Of a stretch of DNA of 64,000 bases, positions 1,097 to 39,547 are shown in pieces. The notes beneath the pieces are model-generated. The model had not been told where the DNA came from, did not search any database, and worked only from the letters and a program-made list of their open reading frames with translations. The position numbers were made by a program, and so were the translations under genes. The stretch is from NCBI RefSeq assembly GCF_017163705.1, contig NZ_JAFIWB010000001.1, forward strand, positions 434,001-498,000, read 5' to 3'. Origin of the DNA: Xanthomonas bonasiae (lineage in GTDB: Bacteria > Pseudomonadota > Gammaproteobacteria > Xanthomonadales > Xanthomonadaceae). Each line of letters starts with the position of its first letter. Position 1 is the stretch's first letter.

Positions 1097-1999
1097 ATGT
1101 CCAATCTGCGCCGCCTGCCTTCGCTGAACGCCCTGCGCGCGTTCGAGGCCGCCGCGCGGCTGCGCAGCGTCGGCGGCGCGGCGGCCGAACTGCACGTCAC
1201 CCACGGCGCGGTCAGCCGCCAGATCCGGCTGCTGGAGGAGGAACTGGGGCTGGCGCTGCTGCAGCGCGAGGGCCGCGGCATCCGCCCGACCGCGGCCGGC
1301 GAGCGGCTGCGCGACGCGGCCGGCGGCGCCTTCGCCCAGTTGCAGGACGCGGTGGCGGAACTGCGCCGGCCGGCACGGCCCAGCGCCCTGGTGCTCGGCT
1401 GCCCGGGCAGCATCCTGGCGCGCTGGATGATTCCGCGACTGCAGGCGCTGCAGCGCGACCTGCCCGCGCTGACCCTGCATCTGTCCGCGCACGAAGGCGA
1501 GTTCGGCGCCGACCTGGACGGGCTGGACGCGGCGCTGCTGCTCGGCCAGGCGCCATGGCCGGAGAGCTGGCAGGTGTACGTGCTGGCGCCGGAGCGGATC
1601 GGCCCGGTGCTCAGCCCGGCGCTGCCGCAGGCGCAGACGCTGGCGGCCGGCCCGCCCTCGGCGCTGCTGCAGCAACCGCTGCTGCACACCGCCTCGCGCC
1701 CGCAGGCGTGGCCGTCCTGGGCGCAGGCGCATGGCGTGGACCCTGCGGCGCTGCGCTACGGCACCGGTTTCGAACACCTGTACTACCTGCTCGAAGCGGC
1801 GCTGGCCGGCATCGGCGTGGCGATCGCGCCGCAGCCGCTGGTCGCCGACGACCTGGCCAACGGACGCCTGCTGGCGCCGTGGGGCTTCGCCGAGACCGGC
1901 GGCGAGTGGGCGCTGTGCACGCGCCGGGAAACGCAGGACCCGCGGGTGCAGGCATTGGCGCGCTGGCTGGCTGGCGAGTTGCGGCTGTGCGGCGGCTAA
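1097..1999 (+). CDS. LysR-family transcriptional regulator (TrpI/GcvA-like)
   Basis: A 300-residue LysR-type regulator. The N-terminal winged helix-turn-helix covers roughly residues 8-66, with the typical LNALRAFEAAARL and THGAVSRQIRLLEEELG motifs. A type-2 periplasmic-binding-like effector domain follows from about residue 90. HTH wording such as AAAELHVTHGAVS is typical of the GcvA/TrpI/AmpR subgroup. Its position divergent from trpB suggests that it activates the trp genes, as TrpI does in pseudomonads; this is inference from context. The ATG at 1097 follows an AGGA site at good spacing. Confidence 0.88.
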   Translation: MSNLRRLPSLNALRAFEAAARLRSVGGAAAELHVTHGAVSRQIRLLEEELGLALLQREGRGIRPTAAGERLRDAAGGAFAQLQDAVAELRRPARPSALVLGCPGSILARWMIPRLQALQRDLPALTLHLSAHEGEFGADLDGLDAALLLGQAPWPESWQVYVLAPERIGPVLSPALPQAQTLAAGPPSALLQQPLLHTASRPQAWPSWAQAHGVDPAALRYGTGFEHLYYLLEAALAGIGVAIAPQPLVADDLANGRLLAPWGFAETGGEWALCTRRETQDPRVQALARWLAGELRLCGG

Positions 2000-2094
2000 G
2001 CGCTTTCTTTCGCCTGGTTGCCGGCGGCCCGCGTTGCGGAGACGCTACCGGAAACGCGAAGCCGCGACGGCCTAGCGAGCGACGCGTTTTCGGA

Positions 2095-2126
2095 TGTCTG
2101 TCGCGGCTGAAGCCGCTCCTACAGGG
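2095..2126. repeat. REP-like palindromic element, copy 1
   Basis: The core GCGGCT-GA-AGCCGC (2103-2116) forms a 6-bp stem with a 2-nt loop and is followed by CCTAC. The same sequence in reverse orientation occurs at 26281-26304. Elements of this kind are abundant between genes in Xanthomonas and Stenotrophomonas and are usually linked to REP-associated tyrosine transposases. None is encoded here. Confidence 0.75.
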
Positions 2127-2148
2127 GCTCGCCGGCTGGCGAAAGACA

Positions 2149-2169
2149 TCGGCCGCTGTGCGCGGCCGA
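2149..2169 (-). terminator. Hairpin downstream of telA (possible terminator)
   Basis: TCGGCCGC and GCGGCCGA form an 8-bp perfect stem with a 5-nt loop, 10 nt past the telA stop. In the minus-strand direction it is followed only by a short T-containing stretch (TGTCTTTC), so terminator function is uncertain. Confidence 0.4.
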
Positions 2170-2179
2170 CGCTAGCGCC

Positions 2180-3277
2180 TCAGCCGGCCGGGGTCGGCGC
2201 CGCCAGGCGCTGCTGCAGCTCGTCGCGCAACCGCGCCAGTTCGACCTCGGCCGCACGCCGTTGCTGCATGCCGTCGCGGTGGATCTCGCGCACCTCTTCC
2301 ACCGTGGCGATCAGTTGCTCGTGCACGTGGCGCAGCGTGTCCATGTCGATCACCGCGCGCTGGTTGGCGCGCGCGGTGTCCACCGAGGTCTGCCGCATCA
2401 GTTCTGCGTTGCGCCGCATGATGTCGTTGGTGGCGTCGTCGATGGCGTTGGACAGGGCCGCGGCGTTCTGCTGCTCGCTCAGCGACAGCTGGATCGCGAA
2501 CTGGCGCTTCCACGACGGGATGGTGATGTCGCGCACCGTGTTGAACTTCTCGATCAACTGCAATGCGTTGGCCTGGATCAGGCGGATCATCGGCAGCGCC
2601 TGGTCGGCCGCATGCTGCATCACCTGCAGGTCGCCGACGCGCTTGTCGAGCAGGCGGATGGCGGTGTCGATCTCGGCGCGCTGGCCGCGCGCCTGCGGAT
2701 CGTCCTGCCCCGCCAGCGCCAGATGCTGCTGCTGCAATTCGGCCAGCCGCAGCTTGCCGGCAGCCACGTGCAGGCCCAGCTCGCGGCGTTCGGCCTGCAC
2801 CATCTGGTGCATGCGGTCGAACTCGCCCACGCGCTGGCTCAGATTCGCCTGCTGCGCGCCGACATCGCGCAGCAACTGCTCGATCTGGCGGTTGGTGTCG
2901 CTGAACTTCTGCACCAGCTCGCCCTTGGAGGCGCGCAGCCGGTCGATCAGGCCGCCGATCAGCGGCACCCGCGAGCGTTCGCCGAGCTGGTCCAGCTTCA
3001 GCGCGCGGGCGATCCGCACCACCTCGCCGAGCTTGTCGCCGGTGGCTTCGAGATCGCGGTTGCGCACCTGGTCCAGCAACTGGCTGGAAAACGCGGCGGT
3101 ATGCGCGGCGACCTCGCTGCCGAACAGGTGCAGGCTGCCCGGGGCCAGGTCGCGCAGCCCCTGCGCCAGGGCGACGATCTGCTCGCGGTCGTCGGCCACC
3201 AGGCCCAGGGCCTTGAGCTCGGCCGCGTCGGGCGTGGCCGGCGCAGCCTGCGGCAGCAGCGGATTTTCCTGGGTCAT
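2180..3277 (-). CDS. TelA/KlaA-family toxic anion resistance protein
   Basis: A 365-residue, mostly helical cytoplasmic protein of the TelA family, linked to tellurite and toxic-anion resistance and often found in Ter-type stress clusters. Recognisable family stretches include VPLIGGLIDRLRASKGELVQ, RLLDKRVGDLQVMQ, RLIQANALQLIEKFNTV and ITIPSWKRQF. It has no membrane segment and no nucleotide-binding motif. The start has a strong GGAG Shine-Dalgarno site. It is the last gene of the five-gene minus-strand operon, 47 nt after a shorter TelA-like protein. The biochemical role of TelA is not established; a part in envelope stress is inferred from the flotillin and AAA+ partners upstream. Confidence 0.9.
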   Translation of the reverse strand: MTQENPLLPQAAPATPDAAELKALGLVADDREQIVALAQGLRDLAPGSLHLFGSEVAAHTAAFSSQLLDQVRNRDLEATGDKLGEVVRIARALKLDQLGERSRVPLIGGLIDRLRASKGELVQKFSDTNRQIEQLLRDVGAQQANLSQRVGEFDRMHQMVQAERRELGLHVAAGKLRLAELQQQHLALAGQDDPQARGQRAEIDTAIRLLDKRVGDLQVMQHAADQALPMIRLIQANALQLIEKFNTVRDITIPSWKRQFAIQLSLSEQQNAAALSNAIDDATNDIMRRNAELMRQTSVDTARANQRAVIDMDTLRHVHEQLIATVEEVREIHRDGMQQRRAAEVELARLRDELQQRLAAPTPAG

Positions 3278-3324
3278 CGTGCTTCTCTCCTTCGATAGCG
3301 GGACGCGGCGGCTCGGGCGCAGGC

Positions 3325-4053
3325 TCAGCGCAGTCTAGCCCGCATCGCCTGGACTTCGGCCAGGATGCGCTGCTGCGCCTGCGCGGCGCGGGTGGCGTGG
3401 GCCGCGCCATGCGCCGCCTGCACCGCCGACTCGGCCTGGCGCCATGCCGGCAGCAGCACCTCGCGGATATGCCGATAGCGCTGCAGCAGCTCGTTGCCCT
3501 GCTGTTGCAGCAGGCGCCACTGCGCGGCCTCCAGTTGCCAGGCGGCGGCGACGCGCTGCAGGTGATCGAGACGCCGGCTCCAGGCTTCGGTCAGCTGCGC
3601 AGCACTGGCCGCCGCCGCACCTGCGGCGGCCGCGGCGATCCAGCGTTCGAGCGCGGCGACGCCGGCATCCGCAGCGGCCGCCATCGCGCCATGGTCATCG
3701 AGACGCTGCTGCAGTCCGAGCGCCTGCTGGTCGGCGCGCAGCAGCACCACGCCCATCTGCGAACTCAGGGTCTCGGCCTCGGCCTGCGCTTCCAGGTCGC
3801 GTCCGAGCAGGCGCCCGAGCACGCCGCTGGCGCGGCGGATGCGGTGCGGATCGCGCGCCTGCAGCGCCTGCTGGATGTGCTCCAGCTCGCGGACCAGCGC
3901 AGCGCCGCTATCGGGGGTCGTGTCACGCTGCGCCAGCGCCTGGCCGACGGCCTCCAGCAACGGCGCCGCGTAGCCTGCCGCAGCCTGTGCGTCGCCCATC
4001 TCCAGCGGCGAGGCAGGCGGCTGCGGCAGCGCCGGGACGATGTCCGCGCTCAC
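3325..4053 (-). CDS. Divergent, shortened TelA-like coiled-coil protein
   Basis: A 242-residue, Ala/Gln-rich, helical protein with no signal peptide or membrane segment. It would usually be called hypothetical, but its C-terminal half lines up with the neighbouring TelA. RRLDHLQRVAAAW and RLLQQQGNELLQRY match the TelA blocks around KRVGDLQVMQ and RLIQANALQLIEKF, and IREVLLPAWRQ matches TelA VRDITIPSWKRQ. It is therefore probably a degenerate paralogue of TelA that lacks part of the N-terminal region. Its ATG overlaps the stop of the upstream ATPase gene as ATGA, implying translational coupling. A role as a partner of TelA is inference. Confidence 0.75.
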   Translation of the reverse strand: MSADIVPALPQPPASPLEMGDAQAAAGYAAPLLEAVGQALAQRDTTPDSGAALVRELEHIQQALQARDPHRIRRASGVLGRLLGRDLEAQAEAETLSSQMGVVLLRADQQALGLQQRLDDHGAMAAAADAGVAALERWIAAAAAGAAAASAAQLTEAWSRRLDHLQRVAAAWQLEAAQWRLLQQQGNELLQRYRHIREVLLPAWRQAESAVQAAHGAAHATRAAQAQQRILAEVQAMRARLR

Positions 4054-7000
4054 GCCGGGCCGGGCTCCGGATCGTCGCCGCGCGCGGCCCCGGCTTCGCC
4101 GTAGAAATGCCGCGCCAGCGCTTCGTCGAGTTGGCGTTCGGCCAGCGTGCGCGGACGGCGCTCGCGCGGCGCGACCGCGGACGGCGTCGCCGGCTCGCGC
4201 AGATAGGCGCGGACCGCCTCGGCCAGGCCCGCCAGCGCCTGCCCGGCCTGGGCGTGGCCCTCGTGCGAGCGCGCCAACGCGTCCAGCAAGGGCTGCAGTT
4301 CCGGTGTGGCTGGAGCAACAGGCGGCGGCGCCGAACTGGGTTCGGAAACGGCTGGTGCCGCCGGCGCACGCTCACGCTCGGCCAGCACCTGCTGCAGCAG
4401 CGCCAGCATCTGCTCCCAGCGCTGCTGCGCCGATGCCGGTTCGGCGCGCAGCACCTGCAGGCCGCTGGCGATATCGGCCAGCTGCGCCACCATGCGTCCG
4501 CCGACGTCGGCCTCGTCCGCGCCCATCGCCTTGTTGCGCAGGAAATCGCGCTTGATCTGCTCCCAGCGCGCCAGCTCCTCGGCCCCCATCGTGCCGCGCA
4601 GTTCGGCCAGCTTGAGCAGGTTTTCCTCGGCGCCGCTGGTCAGCAATTGCGCCTCGCCCAGGTAGTGGTCGGAGATCAGCTGCTGCAGCTCGGCCTCGTT
4701 CATCACCGGCGAGATCTTCTCCGCCAGCTTGTTCATGTTGCGGTAGCTGCCCTGCAGCCGGAACGGCGGCTCGCTGCGGTAGCGATCGTCCTGCGCGGCG
4801 CTGGCGATGTACTGCTGGTTGACCCGGTAGACCACGTCGCGCACGCGCAGCATGCGCTGCAGGGTGGCGACGATCTCGTTGATCTCCGCGCCGCTGTAGG
4901 CGTGGCTCAGGGCATTGGTGGACATCTCCTTGCCGCGCGCGCGCTCGACCAGCAGGTACAGATCGGCCAGCTCGCGGGTGGCCAGCGGCGCCAGCACCGG
5001 ATTGGAGGTCAGGCTGTTCTCGATGTAGCTGAGCACGAACGCGTCCTCCATGCCGCCGAGCACGTCGCCCAGGTTGTAGACGTCGGCGCGGTTGGCGAGC
5101 ATGTCCGGAATCTTGAACACCTCGCCGGACTCGGTGTACGGATTGCCGGCCATCACCACGCAGAACTTCTTGCCGCGCATGTCGTAGGTGCGGGTGCGCC
5201 CCTTCCACACGCCCTCGATGCGGCGGGTGCCGTCGCACAGCGAAATGAACTTCTGCAGGAATTCCGGATTGGTGTGCTGGATGTCGTCGACATACAGCAT
5301 GGTGTTGTTGCCCATCTCCAGCGCCAGGTTGAGCTTGAGCAGTTCCTGCCGCGCGGTGGCGTCCGGCGCCTGCGCCGGATCCAGCGAGCGCACCGCATGC
5401 CCCAGCGCCGGACCGTTGATCTTCATGAAGACCAGGCCGAGGCGGCTGGCCACGTATTCCATCAGCGTGGTCTTGCCGTAGCCCGGCGGCGAGATCATCA
5501 GCAACAGGCCCATCAGGTCGCTGCGCTTGTTCTCGCCGACGGTGCCCATCTGCTTGGCCAGGTTGTCGCCGATCACGCCAAGATAGACCTCGTTGATCAG
5601 CTTGTTGCGCACGAACGAGGACAGCGGCCGCGCCTTGAACTCGGACAGGCGCAGCTGCTCGCGTTCGCGCACGATGACCTGTTGGCGCAAGGACTGGTAG
5701 TGGCGGAAGCCCGGCACGAACGTCTGTTCGTGGCGGTGCAGGCGCGCCAGGAAATCGTCGATGGCGATGGTCAGGCGGCCGCCCTCGATGCGCGGATGTT
5801 CGCCGAGCAGGCCATCCACCGTGGTCATCAGCAGCACCTCGCTGTGCTGGCTGCGCAGCCGCGACGCCAGCAGCACGATCGCCACCGCTTCCGGCACGTA
5901 GCCGGAATAGGCGACGAAGCGCGGATCCTGGCATAGGCCCTGCAGCCAGTGGCTGGCCAGGGCCCAGCCGGCGGCGAGCTGGCCGCGCACGCGCTCCAGC
6001 GAGCGCTCGAACTCCTCGCGCAGGCCGGCCTCGCCCAGCCGCGCATGCAAGGCGTCGAGCAGTTCGCGCGCATGGCGGCTGAGCGGGAAGGTCGGCTCGC
6101 CCAGCGCCAGCTCGGCGGCCAGGTAGGCAGCCGCGGCGGCGGCGTGGCCGGCGTCGAACGGCAGCAGGCTGTCGTCGAGGAACCGCTGCAACGCCTGCTG
6201 CATCTCGGCCTGCAGCGCCTGGCGGCCCTCGTCTGCGCCGAACAGGCGGAAGATCGCATCGGCGCCGGCCTGGCGCGCGACCCACGCCGCGACCGCGTCG
6301 TCGCGCTGGCGCTCGGCCCAGAACGCCATCGCCAGCGCGCGCGCGGCCGGCGCATGCACCAGCGTGCCGGCCGCCTGATGCAGCGGCAGCAGCGCCTGCA
6401 GAATGCGCGTGGCGTCGTGGTCGTGGATGCCGCGCTCGTAGCCTTCGCGATAGCGCGGCGCGGCGAAATCGCGCACGCTGCGGGCCAGCGCGTCGGGCGT
6501 GGCCGCCTGTTGCAGCAGGCCAGGCAGGTCGAGTCCGTCGCGGCCGGCCAGCGCGGATTCCAGCAGGCTGCCGGCCAGGTATTCGCCGCGGTACAGGTCC
6601 GGCGATTCCGAATCCAGCGTCACCTGCCAGTAGGCGCGCGTCGCGTCGAGCGCGGCGTCGTGCAGCGGCTCCAGATAGTCGGTGCCGGTGAGGTGCAGGG
6701 CCAGTCCGTCCTCGCGCGGCAACAGGGTCAGATCCAGCGCCTGGGTGTTGACGCTGAAGCGGTGCCGCGGGCCGAGCCGGACCACGTTGCCGCCGGACTC
6801 GAACAGCTCGCTGCGGTCGCGCAAGGCGCGTACCGCCTGGTCGCGCACGCCCTTCAGGCGCGCCTCGACATCGTCGGCCTTGACGCTGTCGCGGTAGCCG
6901 CGCAGGCGTTCGGCCAGTTCGCGCAGCTTGAGGATCAGCGGATCGCCGGCGAAGAAGGCGTTGAGTTCGTCCGCCGTGGCGAAGCGTTCGGTGCGCCTGG

Positions 7001-9395
7001 GCAGCCCGTCGAGGATGCGCGTGGCGGCATCGAGCAGCGAGCGCGCCTTGCGCTGGCGCTCGTCGAGCAGGGCCTGCTTGTGGGTGTCGAAGGCCTCGAT
7101 CAGCTCCTCGCGCTTGCTGAGGATGTCGCCGAGGAACTGCTCGTGCTCGCCGAACTGGCTCTCCAGTTCCTCCAGCTGCAGCAGCAGCCGCGACAGCTGC
7201 TCGTCGGCGCGCTCGGGATCGGTGGACAGGGACAGCGCGCTGGTGATGGCCTGGCCGAACAGCGCGAACTGCGCCGCGAACTGGGCCACGGTCTCGGCCG
7301 AGCCCAGGGTCTTGCGCCGCTGCTGGGCGCGCGCACGCGCCTGGTTGAGCCGCGCATAGACTTCGGACAAGGTTTCGACCACGCGGGTACGTTCGGTGGC
7401 GTCGTCGACCTTGAGCCCGGCCATCAGCTCGGAGAGCAGATCCAGGTCGTTCGACAGCGCCTGCATCGCCTGCAACTGCTCGGACAGCGCGCGCGCGGTG
7501 ACCGCCGCTTGCGCCGCCGCGTCCAGTTCGGCCAGGCGCGCGTTCAACGGCGCCAGCGCGGTCTCGCTGCCGAGGAAGCGGCCGGTGGCCGCACCGACCG
7601 TCTCGTGCGCCTGCTGCAGCGCCGCGCCCATCGCATCGATCGCCGCGGTATCGATGTAACGGTATTCGCGGATCGTCAACAGATGCCCGCGCTGGGCGGC
7701 GATGGCATTGAGCGGCTCGACGAATTCCTGGATGCCGGTCCAGTTCTCCGGCTGCAACCGCGCCAGCAGCGCCTTGTGCGCGGCGACGGCGTCGGCCATC
7801 GCCTGCTCGGACTGCTGGCGGATCGACAGCACCTTCTCGTATTCGTCCAGCACCGCTTCGCCTGTGGCGCTGATGCCGCGCAGCACGCCGCCGAGACCGC
7901 CGCAATGCGCGTCGTCCAGCCAGTGGTGGGCGTCGAACAGGCGCCGCGCGTCCTCGACCAGCAATTCGTAACGCTGCACCGAGACCTCGTCGTGCTCGAT
8001 CGCGCGCGCCAGCCCGAACAGGTTGGAGATGCCGCGCACCAGTTCGGCGTTGCCGATGCGGCCGAGGAAGCTGTTCCCCGGCGCGCGCCTGGCGGCGAAT
8101 TCGTCGCTGCTGAACGGGGTCTGCCAGACCTGCATCGGATGGATCCGGGTCGGTTCGGTGCCTTCGGCATGGAACAGCACCATGCGCCCGTCCTGCAGCA
8201 GCGCATAGCCGTGGCCGAACACCGGGTTCTGCAGCGCGCGGCGAATGGTGTTGTAGACGAACAGCGCCGACTTGCCGCATTCGCGCTCGTAGAAGATGTA
8301 CAGCACGTCCTCGCCGTTGGGCGAGCGGATCGCGCGCTTGAACTGCATGCCGTCCATCGCCGCGTCGAACGCCTTGTGGTCGCCGTTCTGCAGGTAATAG
8401 CCGCCGGGGAAGATGATGCCGTGGTCCTCGGGCAGCTGCACGCAGGCCTGCACGATGGCGTCGTTGCGCACGATGCGGCCGCTGAGCGTGTTGTAGATCA
8501 GCCCGCGCCATTGCGTCTCGCGGTACGGCAGCACCTTGAGCAGGACCAGCGTGCCGACCCGCGCGAAATCGAACTGCGCATCGTCCAGCGACTGGGTCTT
8601 GTCCTCGACCGGCTCGCTGTAGATGCCCTGCCCGGTCTCGGTGTTGTTCTCGACCTTGATGGTCAGGTCGCCGCCGATGGTTTCCACGAACAGGGTGTCG
8701 AGGATGTTCAGGTGCGAGTGGCGGCCGTTCACCGCCATCTCGCGGGTGGCGCGGGTCCATTCGAAATCGAACGGCGGCGGCAGCGCGATGTCGCGCTCGC
8801 CGCGCGCGTCGATGTAGCTCAGCTCGCCGGCGCTGTCGATCGCCCAACGGAACACGCGCACGTCGGCGCTGCGCTCGCCGATCTGGAACGACGCCAGCAG
8901 CTTGCCGCCGATGACGATCAGCTGCAGCAGCCGCGCGTGCTTGTAGTAGGCGTACAGCTCGCCGAAATCGTGCACGAAGCCGGGCTGGCCGAGGAAACTG
9001 CCGGCCAGGTCGATCGGGCTGACGTCGTAGCCGTCGGCGCCCTCGACCAGCCGGTACAGGCCGAACACGTCCTCGATCCGGGTCTGGTTCTTGAGCCCGA
9101 GGAACACGTTGTAGCCGAACAGCAGCATGTCCTGGCCGACCTGCACGATGTCGCGGCCGACGCAATTGTTCTCGGTGCGGATGCGGAAGCGCCCGACCAC
9201 CTCGAGCCGGCTGTCGCCGAATTCCTGCAGCCGCTGCGCGTTGAGCGCCTCGACCGCTTCGTGCAGGCGCGCGCCCTGCTCGACCAGGCGCCGGCGCAGC
9301 ACGTCGTAGGCGCCGCCCTGGGCGACGGCCTGGTCGACCTGGGACGGATTGGCGCCCTCGGGCTGCGGATCGGTCGGGGATTGGGTTGCTGCCAT
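4050..9395 (-). CDS. Giant AAA+ ATPase of the DUF3686 'DNA repair ATPase' type
   Basis: A 1781-residue cytoplasmic protein. The N-terminal half resembles the DUF3686 family, annotated as ATPases involved in DNA repair. The central part is rich in coiled coil. A AAA+ module near residues 1298-1400 has a Walker A motif (SPPGYGKTT), a Walker B motif (MLYVDDIQH), and a sensor-like MAGNPYTESGEVF. The C-terminus is a low-complexity Ala/Pro tail. The ATG at 9395 was chosen because a GGAG site precedes it; the frame stays open to 9473, but that extension crosses a GC hairpin. Substrate and function are unknown. The link to yqiJ/yqiK and telA suggests membrane stress remodelling rather than classical DNA repair (inference). 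Confidence 0.85.
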   Translation of the reverse strand: MAATQSPTDPQPEGANPSQVDQAVAQGGAYDVLRRRLVEQGARLHEAVEALNAQRLQEFGDSRLEVVGRFRIRTENNCVGRDIVQVGQDMLLFGYNVFLGLKNQTRIEDVFGLYRLVEGADGYDVSPIDLAGSFLGQPGFVHDFGELYAYYKHARLLQLIVIGGKLLASFQIGERSADVRVFRWAIDSAGELSYIDARGERDIALPPPFDFEWTRATREMAVNGRHSHLNILDTLFVETIGGDLTIKVENNTETGQGIYSEPVEDKTQSLDDAQFDFARVGTLVLLKVLPYRETQWRGLIYNTLSGRIVRNDAIVQACVQLPEDHGIIFPGGYYLQNGDHKAFDAAMDGMQFKRAIRSPNGEDVLYIFYERECGKSALFVYNTIRRALQNPVFGHGYALLQDGRMVLFHAEGTEPTRIHPMQVWQTPFSSDEFAARRAPGNSFLGRIGNAELVRGISNLFGLARAIEHDEVSVQRYELLVEDARRLFDAHHWLDDAHCGGLGGVLRGISATGEAVLDEYEKVLSIRQQSEQAMADAVAAHKALLARLQPENWTGIQEFVEPLNAIAAQRGHLLTIREYRYIDTAAIDAMGAALQQAHETVGAATGRFLGSETALAPLNARLAELDAAAQAAVTARALSEQLQAMQALSNDLDLLSELMAGLKVDDATERTRVVETLSEVYARLNQARARAQQRRKTLGSAETVAQFAAQFALFGQAITSALSLSTDPERADEQLSRLLLQLEELESQFGEHEQFLGDILSKREELIEAFDTHKQALLDERQRKARSLLDAATRILDGLPRRTERFATADELNAFFAGDPLILKLRELAERLRGYRDSVKADDVEARLKGVRDQAVRALRDRSELFESGGNVVRLGPRHRFSVNTQALDLTLLPREDGLALHLTGTDYLEPLHDAALDATRAYWQVTLDSESPDLYRGEYLAGSLLESALAGRDGLDLPGLLQQAATPDALARSVRDFAAPRYREGYERGIHDHDATRILQALLPLHQAAGTLVHAPAARALAMAFWAERQRDDAVAAWVARQAGADAIFRLFGADEGRQALQAEMQQALQRFLDDSLLPFDAGHAAAAAAYLAAELALGEPTFPLSRHARELLDALHARLGEAGLREEFERSLERVRGQLAAGWALASHWLQGLCQDPRFVAYSGYVPEAVAIVLLASRLRSQHSEVLLMTTVDGLLGEHPRIEGGRLTIAIDDFLARLHRHEQTFVPGFRHYQSLRQQVIVREREQLRLSEFKARPLSSFVRNKLINEVYLGVIGDNLAKQMGTVGENKRSDLMGLLLMISPPGYGKTTLMEYVASRLGLVFMKINGPALGHAVRSLDPAQAPDATARQELLKLNLALEMGNNTMLYVDDIQHTNPEFLQKFISLCDGTRRIEGVWKGRTRTYDMRGKKFCVVMAGNPYTESGEVFKIPDMLANRADVYNLGDVLGGMEDAFVLSYIENSLTSNPVLAPLATRELADLYLLVERARGKEMSTNALSHAYSGAEINEIVATLQRMLRVRDVVYRVNQQYIASAAQDDRYRSEPPFRLQGSYRNMNKLAEKISPVMNEAELQQLISDHYLGEAQLLTSGAEENLLKLAELRGTMGAEELARWEQIKRDFLRNKAMGADEADVGGRMVAQLADIASGLQVLRAEPASAQQRWEQMLALLQQVLAERERAPAAPAVSEPSSAPPPVAPATPELQPLLDALARSHEGHAQAGQALAGLAEAVRAYLREPATPSAVAPRERRPRTLAERQLDEALARHFYGEAGAARGDDPEPGPA

Positions 9396-9424
9396 CGTCA
9401 ACGGCTCCTGCCGGCTTGCATACG

Positions 9425-9450
9425 GCCGGCGCGCGTCGCCGCGCGCCGGC
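9425..9450 (-). other. Strong hairpin between yqiK and the ATPase gene
   Basis: GCCGGCGCGCG (9425-9435) and CGCGCGCCGGC (9440-9450) pair perfectly over 11 bp with a TCGC loop. It lies 30 nt upstream of the ATPase start codon on the transcript and has no T-run. It could be an RNA-processing site, a partial terminator or a translation-control structure. Confidence 0.6.
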
Positions 9451-9490
9451 TTCTCAACGGGGTCCGGCGGCACGCGGCCGCCGGCGGGCC

Positions 9491-9508
9491 GATCCGCGCG
9501 CGCGGATC
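9491..9508. other. Perfect 18-bp palindrome just after yqiK
   Basis: GATCCGCGCGCGCGGATC is fully self-complementary and begins 15 nt past the yqiK stop in transcript direction. Together with the hairpin at 9425-9450 it fills the 128-nt gap between yqiK and the ATPase gene, the only long gap in this operon. Confidence 0.6.
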
Positions 9509-9523
9509 AGCCCAGCTCCAGGA

Positions 9524-11512
9524 TCACGGCTGCGCAACGGGCAGCGCGCCAGCCGCATCGGCGGCCACCGGCTTGTGGCGCTCCACGCCCAGGTAGCGCT
9601 GCATCAGGTCCTGCACGATCGGGCTCTTGTCGGCCAGGCCTTCGATCGACTTGCCGAGTGAGACCGCCTTGATCAGGTTCTCGAACATGCCGCCGTCGCC
9701 GCCGACCAGGTCGATATCGGCATTGCGCAACGCACTGGCGATGACCTCGGCGTTTTCCTTGGACACTTCCTTGCCGGCTTCGATCGAGGCCAGCGCCTGC
9801 TTGAGGCTGTTGTCGAGCATCATGCGGAACTCTTCGTGGCCGCGCGCGGTGTCGCTGAGCGCACCGATCGCCTCGAACTTGCGGGTCAGGCCGTCGGCTT
9901 CGGCGAACAGGCGCTTCTCCACCACCGCCGCCTCGGCCATGCCGATCGACTCGGCCGCGCTGGCCTTGGCCTTGCCCATCTGCTCCTCGCCCTGCGCCTT
10001 GGCCTGCAGCGTCTCGGCCAGCACGCGCGCATCGTTGCTGCCCTGCTTGAGGCTGGCGTCGGCCTTGGCCTCGATCACCCGCGCCTCGGCGATGCCCACC
10101 TTCTCGATCGCCAGCGCCGAGGCTTCCTTGACCTGCGCGTCGGCCAGGCCGGGCGCGGCCTTTTCGGCACGCATGCCGTCGGCGAGCAGTTTCTTGGCTT
10201 CGGCCTGCTTGCCTGCGGCCTCGTGCTCGGCCTGGGCCAGGGTGGTGAGTTCGACCGCGCGGTGCTTGGCCGCGGTCTCGCGCGCCTGCGCTTCCTTGAC
10301 CTGGCGCACCAGCTGTTCCTGCGCCTTGGCCTCGGCTTCCAGGATCGTCACCTGCTTGTGCCGGTCGGCCTCGGCGACTTCGCGCACTTCCTTGATCCGC
10401 TCCTCTTCCTGGGCCACGGTCTTGTCGATGGCGATGCGCTCGCGGGTGATGTTGGCCACGTCCATCTTGCCGTTCTCGACCACCTTGTCGCGCTCCACGC
10501 CCTGCAGCTGCACCTCGCGATCGGTGGTGACCTGCTCCAGCTGGCGCGCGCGCGCCACCCGCTCGACCTCGATGGCGACCGCGCGCTGGCGGTTCTGCTC
10601 GGCGACCTCGACCTCGCGCAGGCGGTTCTGCTCGCGGATGTCGATCAGCTGCTGCGCCTCGATGCGCGCGTTCTCCGACAGCTGGCGCTGTTCTTCCTGC
10701 ACCTTCAGCGTCTCGGCCTGCTCGCGCGCGCGGATCGTGTCGACCTCGCGCTTCTGCCGCGCCTCGGCCTCGGCCTGCTGCCGCTCCAGCGCCAGCAGCG
10801 CCTCGCGCGCTTCCACGTTCTTCTTGGTGATCGCCAGCTTCTCGTTCTGCTCCAGCTCGTTGGTCACCACGTTCTGGGTGGCGGTCAGCTCGGTGATCTT
10901 GCGGATGCCCTCGGCGTCGAGGATGTTGTGCGGATCCAGCAGCGACTTGGGGGTCTGCTCCAGATAGTCGATCGCCACGTCCTCGAGCACGTAGCCGTTG
11001 AGGTCGTTGCCGATCACCGCGATGATCTCGTCGCGGAATTCCTGGCGCTTCTCGAACAGTTCGGTGAAGTGGAACTTCTTGCCGACCGTCTTCAGCGCCT
11101 CGGAGAACTTGGCGTTGAACAGTTCGTCGACCGCATGCTTGTCCGAAGCGCGGTCGGCGCCGATCGCCTTGGCCACGCGCAGCACGTCGGCCTGGGTCTC
11201 GTTGACCCGCAGATAGAACGCGACGGCGATGTCGGCGCGCATGTTGTCGCGGCAGATCAGGCCTTCCTTGCCGCGGCGATCGACCTGCAGGGTGATCAGG
11301 CTGATCCGCATCAGCTCGGCGCGGTACAGCACCGGCACGATCAGCGCGCCGGTGAAATGCACCTTCGGCGTCGAACTCATGTCGTTGACGATCAACGCCA
11401 CGCCCTGGTCCACCTTGCGGTAGAACGCCTTGAACAGGCCGGCCAGTCCCAGCAGCAGCACCAGCAGGATGCCGACGCCGATCAGAAACGGCGCCATCGT
11501 CGCAAAACTCAT
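9524..11512 (-). CDS. yqiK: Flotillin-family inner-membrane protein YqiK
   Basis: A 662-residue flotillin-type SPFH protein, expected to scaffold membrane microdomains. One N-terminal membrane helix lies at about residues 6-27 (FLIGVGILLVLLLGLAGLF). A band-7/SPFH domain runs to about residue 200, and a long charged coiled coil rich in Glu-Ala-Arg covers roughly 210-510. A flotillin C-terminal region follows, ending with MLDNSLKQALASIEAGKE and nearby blocks. The length and order fit YqiK. Its ATG overlaps the stop of yqiJ as ATGA, and an AAGGAG site lies inside the end of yqiJ, so the pair is translationally coupled. Confidence 0.93.
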   Translation of the reverse strand: MSFATMAPFLIGVGILLVLLLGLAGLFKAFYRKVDQGVALIVNDMSSTPKVHFTGALIVPVLYRAELMRISLITLQVDRRGKEGLICRDNMRADIAVAFYLRVNETQADVLRVAKAIGADRASDKHAVDELFNAKFSEALKTVGKKFHFTELFEKRQEFRDEIIAVIGNDLNGYVLEDVAIDYLEQTPKSLLDPHNILDAEGIRKITELTATQNVVTNELEQNEKLAITKKNVEAREALLALERQQAEAEARQKREVDTIRAREQAETLKVQEEQRQLSENARIEAQQLIDIREQNRLREVEVAEQNRQRAVAIEVERVARARQLEQVTTDREVQLQGVERDKVVENGKMDVANITRERIAIDKTVAQEEERIKEVREVAEADRHKQVTILEAEAKAQEQLVRQVKEAQARETAAKHRAVELTTLAQAEHEAAGKQAEAKKLLADGMRAEKAAPGLADAQVKEASALAIEKVGIAEARVIEAKADASLKQGSNDARVLAETLQAKAQGEEQMGKAKASAAESIGMAEAAVVEKRLFAEADGLTRKFEAIGALSDTARGHEEFRMMLDNSLKQALASIEAGKEVSKENAEVIASALRNADIDLVGGDGGMFENLIKAVSLGKSIEGLADKSPIVQDLMQRYLGVERHKPVAADAAGALPVAQP

Positions 11513-12204
11513 CGGTGGATCTCCTTATCGCCCGCAATCAGGCTATGGGGTAACGGCGAACCCGGCTGATCCTGCTCGCGGGCCACCAGGTAATGGTTGT
11601 GCGCATGCACGTAGTCGACCAGCACGACACGCTCGCCGCGCAGGTAGTGGCTGCCGGCCGGCGCGCGCACCTGCAGCACCAGTCCGGCGCCGCCGTCGTC
11701 GACATTGGCGTAGCCGCTGCCGGCATCGGCGCGCGGCGAGGCGATCACCCCGACCTTGCCGAGCAGCGACTGCTGCGCGACCGGACGCAGCTTCAGCAGC
11801 AGCCGGCGCAGCGGCCGCAGCATCCACGAGGTCAGCGGCACCGCCGGCACCAGCGCCAACAGCGCGACCACGCTGCCCAGGCCCCAGCGCACCCCGTCCG
11901 GCAACGCCTGCAGCAGGAACAGATGCGCGAAATAGGTGCCGGTCCAGGCCCAGAACGCCAGCAGGGCCACGACCAGCATCAGCGGCGCGCCGCCCAGGCC
12001 GAGCCGCGCGAAGATGCCGGAAATGCCATGCAGGCCGTGCTCGGCGCCGTGCGCGCCGTCCACATGCAGATGCAGATGCCCGTCGGCGAGGTGGTGATCG
12101 GCAATGCCGGTCGCGGCCAGCAGCCAGTAGATCGCCGAGAATCCCAGCAAAATGCTGTACGGCAGCGTGGGAAACCCCAGTGCGACGCTCAAGAACTCGG
12201 CCAT
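11509..12204 (-). CDS. yqiJ: OB-fold-containing membrane protein YqiJ
   Basis: A 231-residue integral membrane protein of the YqiJ/NfeD-related group, which accompanies flotillins. It has hydrophobic helices near residues 16-34, 75-100 and 107-128. A His-rich loop (ADHHLADGHLHLHVDGAHG) follows the first helix. The C-terminal OB-fold domain spans about residues 140-231 (SLLGKVGVIASPRADAGSG, GERVVLVDY). The His-rich loop could bind metal, but that is speculation. It is the first gene of the flotillin/ATPase/TelA operon, so the operon promoter should lie in the 276 bp before it. Confidence 0.88.
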   Translation of the reverse strand: MAEFLSVALGFPTLPYSILLGFSAIYWLLAATGIADHHLADGHLHLHVDGAHGAEHGLHGISGIFARLGLGGAPLMLVVALLAFWAWTGTYFAHLFLLQALPDGVRWGLGSVVALLALVPAVPLTSWMLRPLRRLLLKLRPVAQQSLLGKVGVIASPRADAGSGYANVDDGGAGLVLQVRAPAGSHYLRGERVVLVDYVHAHNHYLVAREQDQPGSPLPHSLIAGDKEIHR

Positions 12205-12480
12205 TCCCTCTATCCATCCCTGTGCGGGCAGCGCACACCGCCATCGGGCGCGTACGCTGTCGCTTCATCCTCATCGGCCGGCAACGCGCATCACGCGCGG
12301 CGCGGCATTGCCGACCGACCCCTGGCCCGGATCATACGATAAAGGCGTGACTGCACCCAGCGCGGCGCAAGCGCCATGGCGGTGGCGCGTCTGGATCTGG
12401 CGGCGCGCGGAGCGGTCGATTGCGCAGCCATACTGCTGCGTACGCGGCCTTGGCGACCTGGCGTGGCGGCGCAGTCCGCT
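12205..12480. promoter_or_regulatory. Region upstream of yqiJ, after trpF
   Basis: These 276 bp separate the trpF stop from the yqiJ start, both on the minus strand. No convincing small gene, terminator or repeat is visible. The promoter of the yqiJ-telA operon is expected near 12205-12330, but no -35/-10 pair could be assigned. Confidence 0.35.
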
Positions 12481-13143
12481 CTAGCAGTTGGTGTTCAACT
12501 CGTGGCAATCGGCGCGGCGCACTTCCTCGACGAACTTGCGCATCTTGTGCCCGTCCTTGATGCCCGGCTGGCTCTCGATGCCGCTGGACACGTCCACGCC
12601 CCACGGCAAGGTGGCGATGATCGCGTCGAACACGTTGTCGGAGGTGATGCCGCCGGCGAGCAGGAACGGCCGGTGCAGGCCGGTGGGCAGGCGCGTCCAG
12701 TCGAAGGTCTTGCCGGAACCGCCGCTCTCGCCCGGGGCGTGGCTGTCGAACAGGAAGCCCGCCGCGTTCGGGTACTGCAACTGCAGGGTGCGCGCGTTGA
12801 TGTCGCTGCCGCCCATCGGTACCGCTTTCAGGTACGGCAGGTTGAAACCGCGGCAGAAGCCGTCGTCCTCGTCGCCATGGAACTGCAGCAGGGTCGGCCG
12901 CACCGTGCGCAGCACTTCGCGCACCTCGTCCTTGGGGTTGTCGCGGAACAGCGCGACCACGTCGACCATCGGCGAGGCGGCCTGGCGCATCGCGCGGGCT
13001 TCGGCCGGCGCCACCCGCCGCGGGCTGCCGTGGGCGAACACGAATCCCACCGAATCCACCCCAAGTTCGCCCGCCAGGCGGATGTCGCCGGCACGGGTCA
13101 TGCCGCAGAACTTGATGCGGGTGCGATACAGGGTTCGATTCAT
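12481..13143 (-). CDS. trpF: Phosphoribosylanthranilate isomerase
   Basis: A 220-residue monofunctional TrpF, catalysing the Amadori rearrangement of phosphoribosylanthranilate in tryptophan synthesis. The (beta/alpha)8 signature is clear: KFCGMT with catalytic Cys13, [14 protein letters not shown] with the catalytic Asp, GGSGKTFDW, and the phosphate-binding [10 protein letters not shown]. The ATG overlaps the truA stop as ATGA (13140-13143), so trpF is coupled to truA. The frame stays open upstream, but that part is truA read in another frame. Confidence 0.97.
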
Positions 13144-35865: not shown

Positions 35866-36549
35866 GGGAAAACTCGCGGAGGTGATGCCGGCCTGCGCGC
35901 AGTGCGCTGCGGCTGGCGAAAAGAAAGGAAGGGTGACACAGGGCGGGCGTCTTGCGTATCGGGCCGGACGCGGCGCGCGATCGCCGCGGCCGGTCGCGCG
36001 CCGCGCGCATTTGCGCGTTCGAACCCGCGATCGCCGAGCGCACGGGGTAATGCAACCGCCGCTACCTCATTTGCTGTGCCCGCTTGCGGCAGCGATCAAC
36101 AACGCATCCATGGCAGCGGCGCGACTCGCCATCGCCATCCATTCCCCATTATGGCGAAACGCCTCACCGCATTGGTGCATGCCGCGCGTGCAGACGATCG
36201 GGTTCGCAGCGATGTCCCTTCCCTGCACAGACCCGACTTTTCAGGCTTTCTGAAACGCGCCGAAAACGCCCCGAACCCCATTCATCTACCTGTCTCGTCC
36301 AGGCCCCGAATTGGTGCAAAGCAGCGCGAGCGATGCCGCACCCGACACCTACAGCCACATTTGCCGGGCGTTTGCCGCCCGATCGCTGCAGATGCAACTG
36401 CTAGCACCAAAACGTGACGGACCTGTACAAACCGCGTTAAGTTCGTGTTACGTTTGGGTCGCTCGCATGGATGCGACCCCAATTCAAGGCATATGCCGTG
36501 GCACGACGCCACCCGCCTTTTCTTTATTGATTTCCGGGGATAGAGAGAA
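35866..36549. promoter_or_regulatory. Long control region between apbC and the first TonB-dependent receptor
   Basis: 684 bp between divergent genes. No gene was recognised. Near the receptor gene it holds TTACGTTTGGGT (36448-36459), also found before the second receptor gene, and a small GTGGC/GCCAC hairpin at 36498-36512. Promoters for both genes should be here. Confidence 0.5.
36448..36459 (+). promoter_or_regulatory. Shared 12-mer upstream of receptor 1
   Basis: TTACGTTTGGGT ends 90 nt before the receptor start codon. The identical 12-mer occurs at 41690-41701 upstream of the second receptor. It could be part of a promoter or an operator. Confidence 0.5.
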
Positions 36550-39360
36550 ATGACTGCTCGTCAGACACGTAGTTTCAAGCACAGCCGCCTGAGCGCGGCG
36601 CTGGTGACCGCCATGGTCGTGCCGGCCGCGTTCAGCGCCTTCGCGCAGGACAGCACCGACACCAAGGCCACCGACCTGGAGCGGGTTACCGTTACCGGCT
36701 CGCTGATCCCGCAGAGCGAGATCGAGACCGCCACGCCGGTCACCACCATCACCGCCGAAGACATCAAGGCCCGTGGCTTCAATTCGGTGGCCGATGTGCT
36801 GCAGAAGAGCTCGTTCGCGACCGGCGCGGTCCAGGGCGGCCAGACCTCTGGCTCCTTCACCCAGGGCGCGAAGACGGTCAGCCTGTTCGGCCTGTCGCCG
36901 GGCTACGTGAAGTACCTGATCGACGGCCGGCCGATGTCGAACTACCCGGCGCTGTACAACGGCAGCGACACCTTCAACAACATCAGCGGCATTCCGATCG
37001 ACCTGGTCGACCGCATCGAGATCCTGCCGGGCGGCCAGTCGTCGCTGTACGGCTCGGACGCGATCGCCGGCGTGATCAACGTCATCCTCAAGAAGAAGAT
37101 GGACGGCGCGGTGTTCAGCATCCGCGGCGGCGGCTACTCCGAAGGCGGCGGCAGCAACTTCCGCGCGACCTTCGCCGACGGCTGGACCTCCGCCGACGGC
37201 CGCACCTCCGTGCTCGGCGGCGTGCAGTACGAAGAGAAGGACCCGATCTGGGCCTACGACCGCAGCCTGACCAAGCAGTACAACACGCAGGGCTACACCG
37301 CGCCGCTGATCAGCCGCGACTTCCTGGTGTACAGCCCGTTCACCAGCTACAAGTTCCTCGACCCGGCCAACTGCGGCAATGTTTCCGGCCTGTTCGGCGG
37401 CACCATGTCCCTGCAGCAGCGTCCGGGCTTCGGCGACGAATACTACTGCGGCTCCAAGTACACCCCGGGCTACCGCACCCTGGACAACGGCCAGAAGTCG
37501 CTGCAGGCGTACGTGCACGGCACCTTCGACCTCAACGACAACGTGCAGCTGTACGGCGACGTCCTCTACAGCAAGGACCAGGTCAAGTACAACTCCGGCG
37601 GCAACTATCTGTGGTGGGGTACCAGCGCCGACTTCGGCTACTACTACGACCCGAACCTGGACGACCTGGTCAACCTGCAGCGCTCGTTCGCGCCTGAGGA
37701 AGTCGGTCCGAACGGCTTCAACGACACGATGAGCCGCGACACCAGCGAGTCGGTCCGCGTCACCTTCGGCGCGCAGGGCACGCTCGGCCAGTCGAGCTGG
37801 GACTACGACGCCGGCGTCACCTACACCCAGTACAAGCTGGAAGAGCGCAACTTCGTCCGCTTCAAGGACCCGATCGACCAGTTCTTCATCAACAAGGTGC
37901 TGGGACCGCAGCAGGGCCTGGATCCGTACTACAACGCCTATCCGGTCTATACGCCCAACTACGCGGCGTTCTACTCGCCGATCACGCCGGAAGAATTCGC
38001 CAGCTTCACCGGCCACGCGACCAACAAGAGCAAGACCTCCGACAGCATGCTGCGCCTGCAGCTGACCAACGCCAAGCTGTTCGCCCTGCCCGGCGGCGAC
38101 GCGGGCCTGGCCGTGGTCGGCGAATACGGCAAGCAGAAGTGGGACTACGATCCGGCACCGGAAATTCTCAACGGCGAAGTGTGGGGCCTGACCTCGGTGG
38201 CCGGCGGCGGCGACCGCGACCGCTACGCGCTGACCTCGGAACTGCGCATGCCGGTGTTCGATCCGCTGACCATCACCCTGGCCGGCCGCTACGACGCGTT
38301 CAAGGCCAGCGGCACCACCGTCGACAAGCCGACCTACAGCATCGCGCTGGAATACCGTCCGTTCCAGTCGCTGCTGCTGCGCGGCAAGTACGGCACCGCG
38401 TTCCGCGCGCCGACCCTGTCCGACCAGTACCAGGGCGAGAGCGGCTACTACAACAGCGTGATCGACTACTACCAGTGCGCACAGCGCGGCTACCTGCCGG
38501 GCAACACCGACAGCTGCCCGGCCGCCTATTCCAGCCGCCAGTTCCGGGGCACGCAGTCCGGCAACCTCGGCCTGAAGCCGATCAATGCCGACGTGTGGAG
38601 CGCAGGCTTCGTGTGGTCGCCGGTCGACCGCATGGCGCTGACCTTCGACTACCTCAACTGGGACATCAGCGATGAAGTCACCCAGCAGAGCGCCGATGCG
38701 CTGAGCCTGCAGGACTACCGTTGCCGCGCCGGCATCGACGACATCAGCTCGGCGCTGTGCACCAGCGCGATGGCGCAGGTCACCCGCAACGCGGCCGGCC
38801 AGATCACGGCAATCTACACGCCGAAGATCAACGTCTCCAACCAGAAGCTGGAAATGGCCGTCGCCTCGTTCCGCTACGGCTACGACTTCGGACGTTGGGG
38901 CGACCTCAGCACCGTGGTCAGCTATACGCAGAAGATCAGCCACGAGTACACGCAGTACGCGGGTGACGAACCGGTCGACCTGCTCAACAACCCGTACTGG
39001 AGCACGGACCCGAAGCGCAAGGCCGACGCCTCGCTGACCTGGGAGATTGGCGACTTCTCGACCACCTGGTACGCCAGCTGGTTCGACAAGACCCCGAACT
39101 ACGCGGCAAATCTCAGCACCGCCGGCTACGCCGCGCCGCGCGCCGGCAAGCTGCCGTCGCACATCACCCACAACGCCAGCGTCACCTACACGGCGTTCGA
39201 GGGCATGGAGCTGTCGCTGATGGTCACCAACGTGTTCAACAAGATGCCGCCCTTCGACGCGTCCTACCCGGGCAGTTCGAGCTCGCCGTACAACTCGTAC
39301 AACTACGATGTGTACGGTCGCGCGTACCTTATGGAAATGCGTTATTCGTTCGGCAAGTAA
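36550..39360 (+). CDS. TonB-dependent outer-membrane receptor 1
   Basis: A 936-residue outer-membrane receptor. A signal peptide ends near AFSAFAQD, followed by a TonB-box-like stretch (LERVTVTGS). The plug domain (TPVTTITAEDIKARGFNSV, DRIEILPGGQSSLYGSDAIAG) and a 22-strand-type barrel follow, ending with the terminal Phe-rich strand YLMEMRYSFGK. Cys pairs in loops (such as CAQRGY and DSCPAAY; CRAGIDD and ALCTSA) suggest disulfides. These proteins import large substrates with TonB energy; no ligand can be read from sequence. A strong terminator follows. The TPR-sulfotransferase gene is convergent. Confidence 0.95.
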   Translation: MTARQTRSFKHSRLSAALVTAMVVPAAFSAFAQDSTDTKATDLERVTVTGSLIPQSEIETATPVTTITAEDIKARGFNSVADVLQKSSFATGAVQGGQTSGSFTQGAKTVSLFGLSPGYVKYLIDGRPMSNYPALYNGSDTFNNISGIPIDLVDRIEILPGGQSSLYGSDAIAGVINVILKKKMDGAVFSIRGGGYSEGGGSNFRATFADGWTSADGRTSVLGGVQYEEKDPIWAYDRSLTKQYNTQGYTAPLISRDFLVYSPFTSYKFLDPANCGNVSGLFGGTMSLQQRPGFGDEYYCGSKYTPGYRTLDNGQKSLQAYVHGTFDLNDNVQLYGDVLYSKDQVKYNSGGNYLWWGTSADFGYYYDPNLDDLVNLQRSFAPEEVGPNGFNDTMSRDTSESVRVTFGAQGTLGQSSWDYDAGVTYTQYKLEERNFVRFKDPIDQFFINKVLGPQQGLDPYYNAYPVYTPNYAAFYSPITPEEFASFTGHATNKSKTSDSMLRLQLTNAKLFALPGGDAGLAVVGEYGKQKWDYDPAPEILNGEVWGLTSVAGGGDRDRYALTSELRMPVFDPLTITLAGRYDAFKASGTTVDKPTYSIALEYRPFQSLLLRGKYGTAFRAPTLSDQYQGESGYYNSVIDYYQCAQRGYLPGNTDSCPAAYSSRQFRGTQSGNLGLKPINADVWSAGFVWSPVDRMALTFDYLNWDISDEVTQQSADALSLQDYRCRAGIDDISSALCTSAMAQVTRNAAGQITAIYTPKINVSNQKLEMAVASFRYGYDFGRWGDLSTVVSYTQKISHEYTQYAGDEPVDLLNNPYWSTDPKRKADASLTWEIGDFSTTWYASWFDKTPNYAANLSTAGYAAPRAGKLPSHITHNASVTYTAFEGMELSLMVTNVFNKMPPFDASYPGSSSSPYNSYNYDVYGRAYLMEMRYSFGK

Positions 39361-39380
39361 TCGCGCCTGAAGCGACACCA

Positions 39381-39410: not shown

Positions 39411-39547
39411 TGCGTGGCGCCTGCTGGCGGAATATGCGCGACAGCGACTGCAAGCGTCCGCTTTGACGCCCGCAATGACCCACGGCCGCACGCGCGATGG
39501 CGCGGCCTTTTCGTTCGGTCGGTGGTTACCGTAAGGGGCGTGCCGCC

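What the first reader, a model, noticed from the sequence alone, without database searches (positions are those of the whole stretch)
2180..12204. Five-gene flotillin/OB-fold/DUF3686 ATPase/TelA operon placed between trpF and trpB
yqiJ, yqiK, a 1781-residue AAA+ protein, a TelA-like protein and TelA lie on one strand with ATGA overlaps at two junctions. Each family is individually known, but their joint function is not. In Pseudomonas trpF lies next to truA and fimV, and trpB with trpI elsewhere; here the module separates trpF from the trpI-like/trpB pair. The combination suggests a membrane-microdomain stress machine in which the flotillin scaffold anchors a large ATPase and TelA proteins.
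Basis: partly seen in the sequence, partly recalled or inferred. Interest (0 to 1): 0.75.

Follow-up and report, generated by a model that had tools for sequence, protein, structure and literature searches.

The report
Membrane-stress operon with swapped partner genes
Five neighbouring bacterial genes form a membrane-stress operon of a recently described kind, but the usual membrane-remodelling protein PspA was not found in the genome and a pair of 'tellurite resistance' (TelA-type) genes sits in the operon instead, with living relatives that carry both.

Summary
The five genes are real, at the stated coordinates. YqiJ, YqiK (flotillin) and the DUF3686 AAA+ ATPase are a conserved trio: YqiK lies upstream of the ATPase in 94 of 94 rows and in 10 of 11 loci from evenly drawn genomes. 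The trio is published as part of a PspA-linked operon type (PMC11237479); a six-gene example, bacABCDEF of Pseudomonas aeruginosa, is one transcript (PMC10948618; that bacF is this ATPase is inferred from gene order). What appears new is the TelA pair. On a quick ATPase tree it joins the operon once, within Lysobacteraceae. Seven loci carry both DUF2170-PspA and the TelA pair; there PspA has diverged far more than its operon partners. In a derived subclade of 19 that holds the window, DUF2170 and PspA are gone from the operon and PspA_IM30 is undetected in 19 of 19 genomes. The trp position is a chromosomal site that is empty in 15 of 15 carrier-free congeners. Best reading: a PspA-less variant of the BAC-type flotillin/AAA+ operon in which two TelA-family proteins took PspA's place. 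The biochemistry is untested.

The parts
11509..12204 (-). YqiJ: small inner-membrane protein (about three hydrophobic segments), NfeD-type partner of flotillins, equivalent to BacC
   Evidence: Profile of relatives finds E. coli YqiJ at 1.6e-12; hydrophobic segments; found in 90 of 93 loci, the 3 misses lie at contig ends
9524..11512 (-). YqiK: flotillin/SPFH protein with one N-terminal hydrophobic segment, equivalent to BacD
   Evidence: PF01145 E=2.2e-7 over cut-off; E. coli YqiK BLASTP 1e-39; upstream of the ATPase on the same strand in 94 of 94 rows, gap median 83 nt, largest 3335 nt
4050..9395 (-). DUF3686 AAA+ ATPase, 1781 aa; S1302-PPGYGK-T1309 (Walker A), D1370-D1371 (Walker B), N1418 and R1436 invariant in nine aligned ATPases; probable BacF
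   Evidence: the motif names are recalled
3325..4053 (-). TelA-like protein, 242 aa, diverged relative of TelA, predicted all-helical with a long hairpin
   Evidence: Profile-profile with TelA E=3.9e-5 and 3.2e-4, reversed controls 0.5 and 0.63; its profile finds TelA proteins at 2.2e-6 and 6e-5 and 8e-6; model pLDDT 88.7
2180..3277 (-). TelA (PF05816), the only PF05816 match of the genome
12205..12480 (-). 276-nt gap between trpF and yqiJ; a CTTT..CGTATnAT block recurs in the five carriers of the genus; possibly the operon's promoter region
   Evidence: no sigma-70-type site at the scan's threshold
1985..12450 (.). Approximate extent of DNA without a match at the same site in 15 of 15 carrier-free congeners

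Best explanation
This is a PspA-less, TelA-bearing variant of the BAC-type (CesT/Tir-PspA-YqiJ-flotillin-AAA+) membrane-stress operon. SHOWN: the YqiJ-YqiK-ATPase core is conserved; by parsimony on an ATPase tree TelA-like and TelA joined it once, downstream of the ATPase, in an ancestor whose operon carried DUF2170 and PspA; those two are absent from the subclade that includes the window, whose genomes have no detectable PspA. INFERRED: YqiJ and YqiK build a flotillin assembly on the inner membrane; the soluble ATPase docks there and uses ATP to load, remodel or strip a helical membrane-bound partner, which is PspA (bacterial ESCRT-III) in the ancestral form and the TelA/TelA-like pair here; the result protects the membrane under envelope stress.
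For: Trio: YqiK upstream of the ATPase in 94 of 94 rows, YqiJ in 90 of 93 loci; both in 10 of 11 loci from evenly drawn class and phylum genomes. Ancestral partners: DUF2170 in 55 and PspA in 52 of 94 rows. Single gain of TelA: one change on a tree of 91 ATPases, branch support 100. Intermediates: 7 distinct loci carry both pairs. Loss: 19 TelA-only rows form one subclade (support 98); PspA_IM30 in 0 of 19 of their genomes (own; the other 18). PspA in the 7 intermediates scores 64-150 bits against 257-371 in 7 related PspA-only loci, with a profile trained outside the family; median ratio 0.29 against 0.74 (DUF2170), 0.88 (YqiJ), 0.83 (YqiK) and 0.95 (ATPase). TelA-like gene between ATPase and TelA in 27 of 27 distinct TelA loci. 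In an unrelated genome TelA lies beside XpaC and near a Band_7 gene (L130). An SPFH protein is required to localise PspA to the membrane in B. subtilis (PMC8581546, abstract). A Listeria telA mutant is more sensitive to nisin and tellurite (PMC12791056, passage citing Collins 2010).
Against: No experiment on a TelA-bearing operon of this kind was found. TelA proteins are not detectable homologues of PspA (hhalign E 0.24 and 0.56), and fold comparison did not place them with ESCRT-III (inconclusive). PspA absence is common in the genus anyway: 12 of 15 carrier-free congeners also lack it, so 0 of 19 is not independent evidence of exchange. PspA at the locus changes 10 times on the tree, so its loss is not tied to TelA elsewhere. 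BacE-type and PLD genes are absent from the TelA-only loci too, so general shrinkage is possible. Deleting the P. aeruginosa flotillin alone had little effect (about 20% less biofilm; PMC13086221, passages).
Confidence: 0.55

Rival explanations
1. Addition, not exchange: the TelA pair does a separate job (for example a flotillin-linked stress function of its own), and DUF2170/PspA were lost independently by ordinary genome streamlining; the trio can work without a helical polymer.
For: DUF2170, PspA, BacE-type and PLD genes are all missing from the TelA-only loci; PspA absence is common in the genus; of 16 tested genomes with neither pair at the locus, 2 have no PspA at all (G036 and G362), and G036 has no TelA either, so a trio alone may suffice.
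Against: PspA, far more than the other partners, diverged in loci that have TelA; 14 of those 16 genomes keep a PspA elsewhere.
Confidence: 0.3
2. Tellurite or toxic-anion resistance operon.
For: TelA's family name (PF05816); a Listeria telA mutant is twofold more tellurite-sensitive (PMC12791056, passage).
Against: No reductase or transporter among the five genes; most relatives of the operon have no TelA (65 of 92 distinct loci).
Confidence: 0.06
3. Anti-phage defence module acquired between the trp genes.
For: Patchy presence in the genus, 5 of 20, with a clean empty site.
Against: Only one weak PADLOC match (LmuB, E=0.0062, coiled-coil stretch); the same trp site is used in Stenotrophomonas-type loci (8 with trpF and lysR-trpB flanks plus L028, whose contig starts at yqiJ), and the ATPase tree groups by family.
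Confidence: 0.05
4. DNA-repair machine, as the Pfam label of DUF3686 says.
For: Pfam description 'ATPase involved in DNA repair'.
Against: The constant neighbours are a membrane protein and a flotillin; I found no paper that tests the label ('DUF3686' 0 papers; 'PF12458' 0 in the 8 listed of 13 papers).
Confidence: 0.04

Closest known systems
BAC operon bacABCDEF of Pseudomonas aeruginosa PA14 (PMC10948618; abstract and passages seen)
   Same: NfeD-type BacC, flotillin BacD (PaFlo3, PMC13086221 passages) and, by gene order in related Pseudomonas loci, the DUF3686 ATPase as BacF; one transcript by RT-PCR there
   Different: No BacA (DUF2170), no BacB (PspA), no BacE-type small protein here; TelA-like and TelA added; no convincing sigma-54 site found (a weak test)
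CesT/Tir-PspA + flotillin + AAA+/beta-propeller + YqiJ/YuaF operons, and their abbreviated PspA-less forms (PMC11237479; section 19 read)
   Same: Same three core families; PspA-less short forms and a phospholipase D variant are described there
   Different: TelA is not mentioned (0 occurrences); the suggestion that short forms may use a PspA encoded elsewhere does not fit 19 genomes without detectable PspA
E. coli K-12 yqiJ-yqiK
   Same: First two genes and their order
   Different: No ATPase or TelA gene annotated next to them
XpaC-TelA pairs (L129, L130)
   Same: TelA with a second protein; in L130 a Band_7 gene nearby
   Different: The partner here is a diverged TelA relative, not XpaC (PF10112)
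B. subtilis PspA-YdjGHI (PMC8581546; abstract and outline seen)
   Same: SPFH protein coupled to an envelope-stress effector
   Different: No DUF3686 ATPase or TelA in the abstract or section headings; the rest was not read

Membership tests
BAC-type flotillin/AAA+ operon | YqiJ/NfeD-type membrane protein followed by flotillin | tested here: met
BAC-type flotillin/AAA+ operon | DUF3686 AAA+ ATPase downstream | tested here: met
BAC-type flotillin/AAA+ operon | DUF2170 (CesT/Tir) and PspA upstream | tested here: not met
   Absent at the locus; PspA_IM30 undetected in the genome; hence a variant, not a full member
BAC-type flotillin/AAA+ operon | Single transcript | not testable with these tools
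   Overlaps and short gaps only; RT-PCR exists for P. aeruginosa (PMC10948618)
TelA family (PF05816) | Full-length match over the curated cut-off, for TelA | tested here: met
   231 bits against 30, profile 13-331 of 332
TelA family (PF05816) | Same, for the TelA-like protein | tested here: inconclusive
   No direct Pfam match over cut-off, but profile links to TelA proteins at 2.2e-6 to 3.2e-4; hhalign probability only 39-71%
PspA/ESCRT-III | Sequence homology of TelA or TelA-like to PspA | tested here: not met
   hhalign E 0.24 and 0.56, like the reversed controls 0.36-0.44; against the diverged PspA of the intermediates 0.017 over 31 columns for TelA-like and 0.65 for TelA
PspA/ESCRT-III | ESCRT-III fold of TelA or TelA-like | tested here: inconclusive
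   helical bundles, no strong match; TelA model only pLDDT 71
Known anti-phage systems (PADLOC) | Match to a defence profile | tested here: inconclusive
   Only LmuB E=0.0062 over a coiled-coil stretch

The most novel reading that the evidence does not exclude
Two TelA-family proteins are a non-homologous replacement for the bacterial ESCRT-III protein PspA as the client of a flotillin-anchored AAA+ ATPase, caught in the act: the ancestor (PspA), the overlap (both, with PspA diverging) and the end state (TelA only, PspA gone) all survive in one bacterial family. This would give the TelA family a defined machine and function.
Probability: 0.35. Interest if true: 0.75.

Novelty: new variant of a known kind. 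Interest (0 to 1): 0.5.

Why it matters
TelA proteins are named for a tellurite effect and, as far as I know, lack a mechanism; flotillin/AAA+ operons lack a biochemical role. A clade in which TelA and PspA overlap and then exchange makes a direct prediction: the same ATPase should act on both. Luteimonas and Lysobacter species with both pairs allow that test in one strain. It also bears on a published guess: short operons without PspA need not rely on a PspA elsewhere, since 19 such genomes have none that is detectable.

Tried and rejected
Trp linkage as function: not indicated; the site is empty in 15 of 15 carrier-free congeners, and 13 of 27 distinct TelA loci show no trp genes in the fetched flanks.

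A mistake found in checking: the 'TrpB' query was read in a wrong frame (Pfam gave 0 families). With the right frame (PALP) the flank counts were repeated and stand: 15 of 15 empty sites.

Sigma-54 promoter: a crude GG-N10-GC score did not set groups apart (18 TelA loci score 5-9, shuffled mean 6.57; 55 DUF2170-first loci up to 9, shuffled mean 5.55, 4 with no site; 15 others, 6 with no site, shuffled mean 2.25); left open. The promoter/terminator scan found no promoter and one terminator-like site, fewer than in shuffles.

The iterated HMM for TelA-like drifted into alanine-rich shadow frames (212 hits at the last round); I discarded those and used a single-sequence search and later the A3 profile, which also found the gene in L043, L047 and L051.

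Limits: L025-L027 have DUF2170 and a short ORF that Pfam does not call PspA, so their 'none' label is unsure. L019=L089 and L020=L044 are the same contigs; these two duplicates and L018 (split ATPase) were left out of the tree. One search also dropped L020 and L045 (near-copy of L015), and L018 for the ATPase row. L046 was labelled TelA-only in the tree, but its contig starts at YqiJ and its genome has a PspA at a contig end, so it is not among the 19. The tree is FastTree with local support; the order of the three lineages inside the TelA clade is unresolved.
Full report
OBSERVATION. The window is 69.3% G+C and lies in a 5.38 Mb genome of 89 contigs rated 100% complete. From the G+C and the neighbours in the tree I take it for a Xanthomonas-like species; that name is my inference and comes from no call. 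One of the two overlaps is GTGA rather than ATGA. Identities were tested: DUF3686, DUF7902 and AAA for the 1781-residue protein and PF05816 for TelA, Band_7 for the N-terminal part of YqiK, and the E. coli K-12 proteins for YqiK (1e-39) and YqiJ (6e-4 alone; 1.6e-12 with a profile). YqiJ and YqiK have hydrophobic segments; the ATPase, TelA-like and TelA have none by a simple scan. All five show purifying selection.

THE CORE. PF12458 is uncommon: 14 of 60 relatives, 7 of 274 genomes of the class and 8 of 398 of the phylum, the window's own genome counted in the last two. A scan of named genomes with an alignment of nine ATPases gave 573 confirmed relatives, of which the best 80 were kept. With 13 stretches from relatives these are 93 loci; with the window, 94 rows, 92 of them distinct. 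YqiK lies upstream of the ATPase on the same strand in 94 of 94 rows (gap median 83 nt, over 1.9 kb in L081, L051 and L082) and YqiJ was found in 90 of 93 loci, the three misses (L019, L058, L089) being at contig ends. In 11 loci from evenly drawn genomes both are there in 10.

THE ANCESTRAL PARTNERS. Clustering of neighbours and Pfam gave DUF2170 and PspA upstream, a small protein between YqiK and the ATPase (no family over cut-off), and rhomboid and PLD-type proteins downstream. In 94 rows DUF2170 is found in 55, PspA in 52, the small protein in 23, PLD in 38 and rhomboid in 29. The order DUF2170-PspA-YqiJ-YqiK-small-ATPase in Pseudomonas loci such as L054 and L061 matches the six genes bacA to bacF of P. 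aeruginosa PA14, where bacA is DUF2170, bacB PspA and bacD the flotillin PaFlo3, and RT-PCR shows one operon (PMC10948618, abstract and passages; PMC13086221, passages). That bacF is the DUF3686 ATPase is inferred from order; 'ATPase' has 0 occurrences in that paper's main text. Ravi et al. 2024 describe the operon type and its shorter forms (PMC11237479, section 19 read; other passages).

THE TELA PAIR. TelA is present in 28 of 94 rows, 27 of 92 distinct loci, and in 0 of 11 evenly drawn loci. A TelA-like gene lies between ATPase and TelA in 27 of 27. The TelA-like protein is probably a diverged relative of TelA: profile-profile E 3.9e-5 and 3.2e-4, reversed controls 0.5 and 0.63, and its profile finds TelA proteins of two other genomes and of L051. 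Neither protein shows sequence kinship with PspA.

HISTORY. On a FastTree of 91 ATPases the TelA label needs one change; the 27 TelA rows form one clade with support 100, near Lysobacteraceae loci that carry PspA. Seven TelA loci also carry DUF2170 and PspA. Nineteen TelA-only rows form a subclade with support 98; the twentieth, L046, groups with two loci that have both and is cut just upstream of YqiJ. So the simplest order is: PspA operon, gain of the TelA pair, loss of DUF2170 and PspA. The order of the three lineages inside the TelA clade is unresolved, and PspA comes or goes 10 times over the whole tree (L058 and L089 left out of that count), so its loss at this locus is not unusual in itself.

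PSPA. PspA_IM30 is undetected in the window's genome and in the 18 other genomes of the TelA-only subclade: 0 of 19. L046's genome has one. It is found in 7 of 7 genomes with both pairs, 10 of 10 tested genomes with DUF2170 at the locus and no TelA, and 14 of 16 genomes with neither pair at the locus (two of these 16 loci, in G032 and G366, lie on short contigs) (52 genomes in that call). Caution: 12 of 15 carrier-free congeners lack PspA too. In the three that have it, DUF2170-PspA stands without the trio in the 18-kb stretches taken. In the seven loci with both pairs PspA is far from the family norm (64-150 bits against 257-371 in seven related PspA-only loci), while DUF2170, YqiJ, YqiK and ATPase fall only to 0.74, 0.88, 0.83 and 0.95 of their controls. 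That is what relaxed or shifted constraint after displacement would look like.

SITE. trpF is present in 20 of 20 genomes of the genus examined; 5 have the ATPase, the flotillin and TelA, and the other 15 have none of them. In those 15 trpF is directly followed by divergent lysR and trpB (which repeats with the right TrpB frame), and the flanks align up to about 1917-1983 and from about 12452-12500 of the window. Eight Stenotrophomonas-type loci have trpF on one side and lysR-trpB on the other, and L028, whose contig starts at yqiJ, has lysR-trpB. So the place is old, and the operon was probably lost in most of the genus; independent transfer into the same site is not excluded. The other 13 distinct TelA loci show no trp genes in the fetched flanks.

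MECHANISM. Shown: gene content, order, history, intact ATPase motifs. Inferred: YqiJ and YqiK form a membrane scaffold, the ATPase docks on it and works on a helical partner. In PspA-bearing forms that partner would be the ESCRT-III protein PspA, as Vps4 works on ESCRT-III (recalled; the parallel for other AAA+ proteins is drawn in PMC11237479, passage). Here the TelA pair would take that place. An SPFH protein localises PspA to the membrane in B. subtilis (PMC8581546, abstract), TelA matters for nisin tolerance in Listeria (PMC12791056, passage), and in an unrelated genome TelA stands with XpaC near a Band_7 gene (L130). AlphaFold models are all-helical (TelA-like pLDDT 88.7; TelA 71.0) and do not decide the matter.

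NOVELTY. TelA with SPFH: 0 papers. YqiK, flotillin, TelA, any two: 106 papers, 25 listed; the listed papers on SPFH proteins hold no TelA, and one listed review on type VII secretion holds flotillin and TelA and was not opened. DUF3686: 0 papers. Further searches on TelA with PspA, with XpaC or with these genera showed no account of this operon in the titles and abstracts listed. Ravi 2024 has no TelA. Within that open-access library I did not find the TelA form described; most subscription papers are not held. I rate it a new variant of a known kind.

Noticed in passing
window 2095-2125: REP-like repeat (TGTAGGAGCGGCTTCAGCCGCGAC on the minus strand) between the end of telA and lysR; that it is a repeat family is recalled, not tested.
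   Followed up: no
window 36544-46517: Around a stretch of lower G+C (0.63-0.65 from 36 to 44 kb) lie two TonB-dependent receptors, a TPR-sulfotransferase and an amine oxidase-like flavoprotein.
   Followed up: partly
L029: Record titled Bacillus subtilis SK7B5 holds a locus that groups with Stenotrophomonas and has the same trp flanks, probably a contaminated assembly.
   Followed up: partly
L124, L125, L126: Three carrier-free congeners have a DUF2170-PspA pair elsewhere; in the 20 genomes of the genus PspA and the TelA operon never occur together.
   Followed up: partly
L142: A DUF3686 ATPase with no YqiJ or YqiK found in the 18-kb stretch: the only such case among the loci examined.
   Followed up: no
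L130:4597-8930: TelA, XpaC-type (PF10112), Band_7 and DUF6498 genes on one strand in an unrelated genome: another TelA-SPFH neighbourhood.
   Followed up: partly
L066:9572-9922, L065:9073-9336 and relatives: Small helical-looking acidic protein between YqiK and the ATPase (BacE position), upstream of DUF2170 in some Lysobacteraceae (L015, L017, L045, L048); no Pfam family over cut-off.
   Followed up: no
[not shown]
   Followed up: partly
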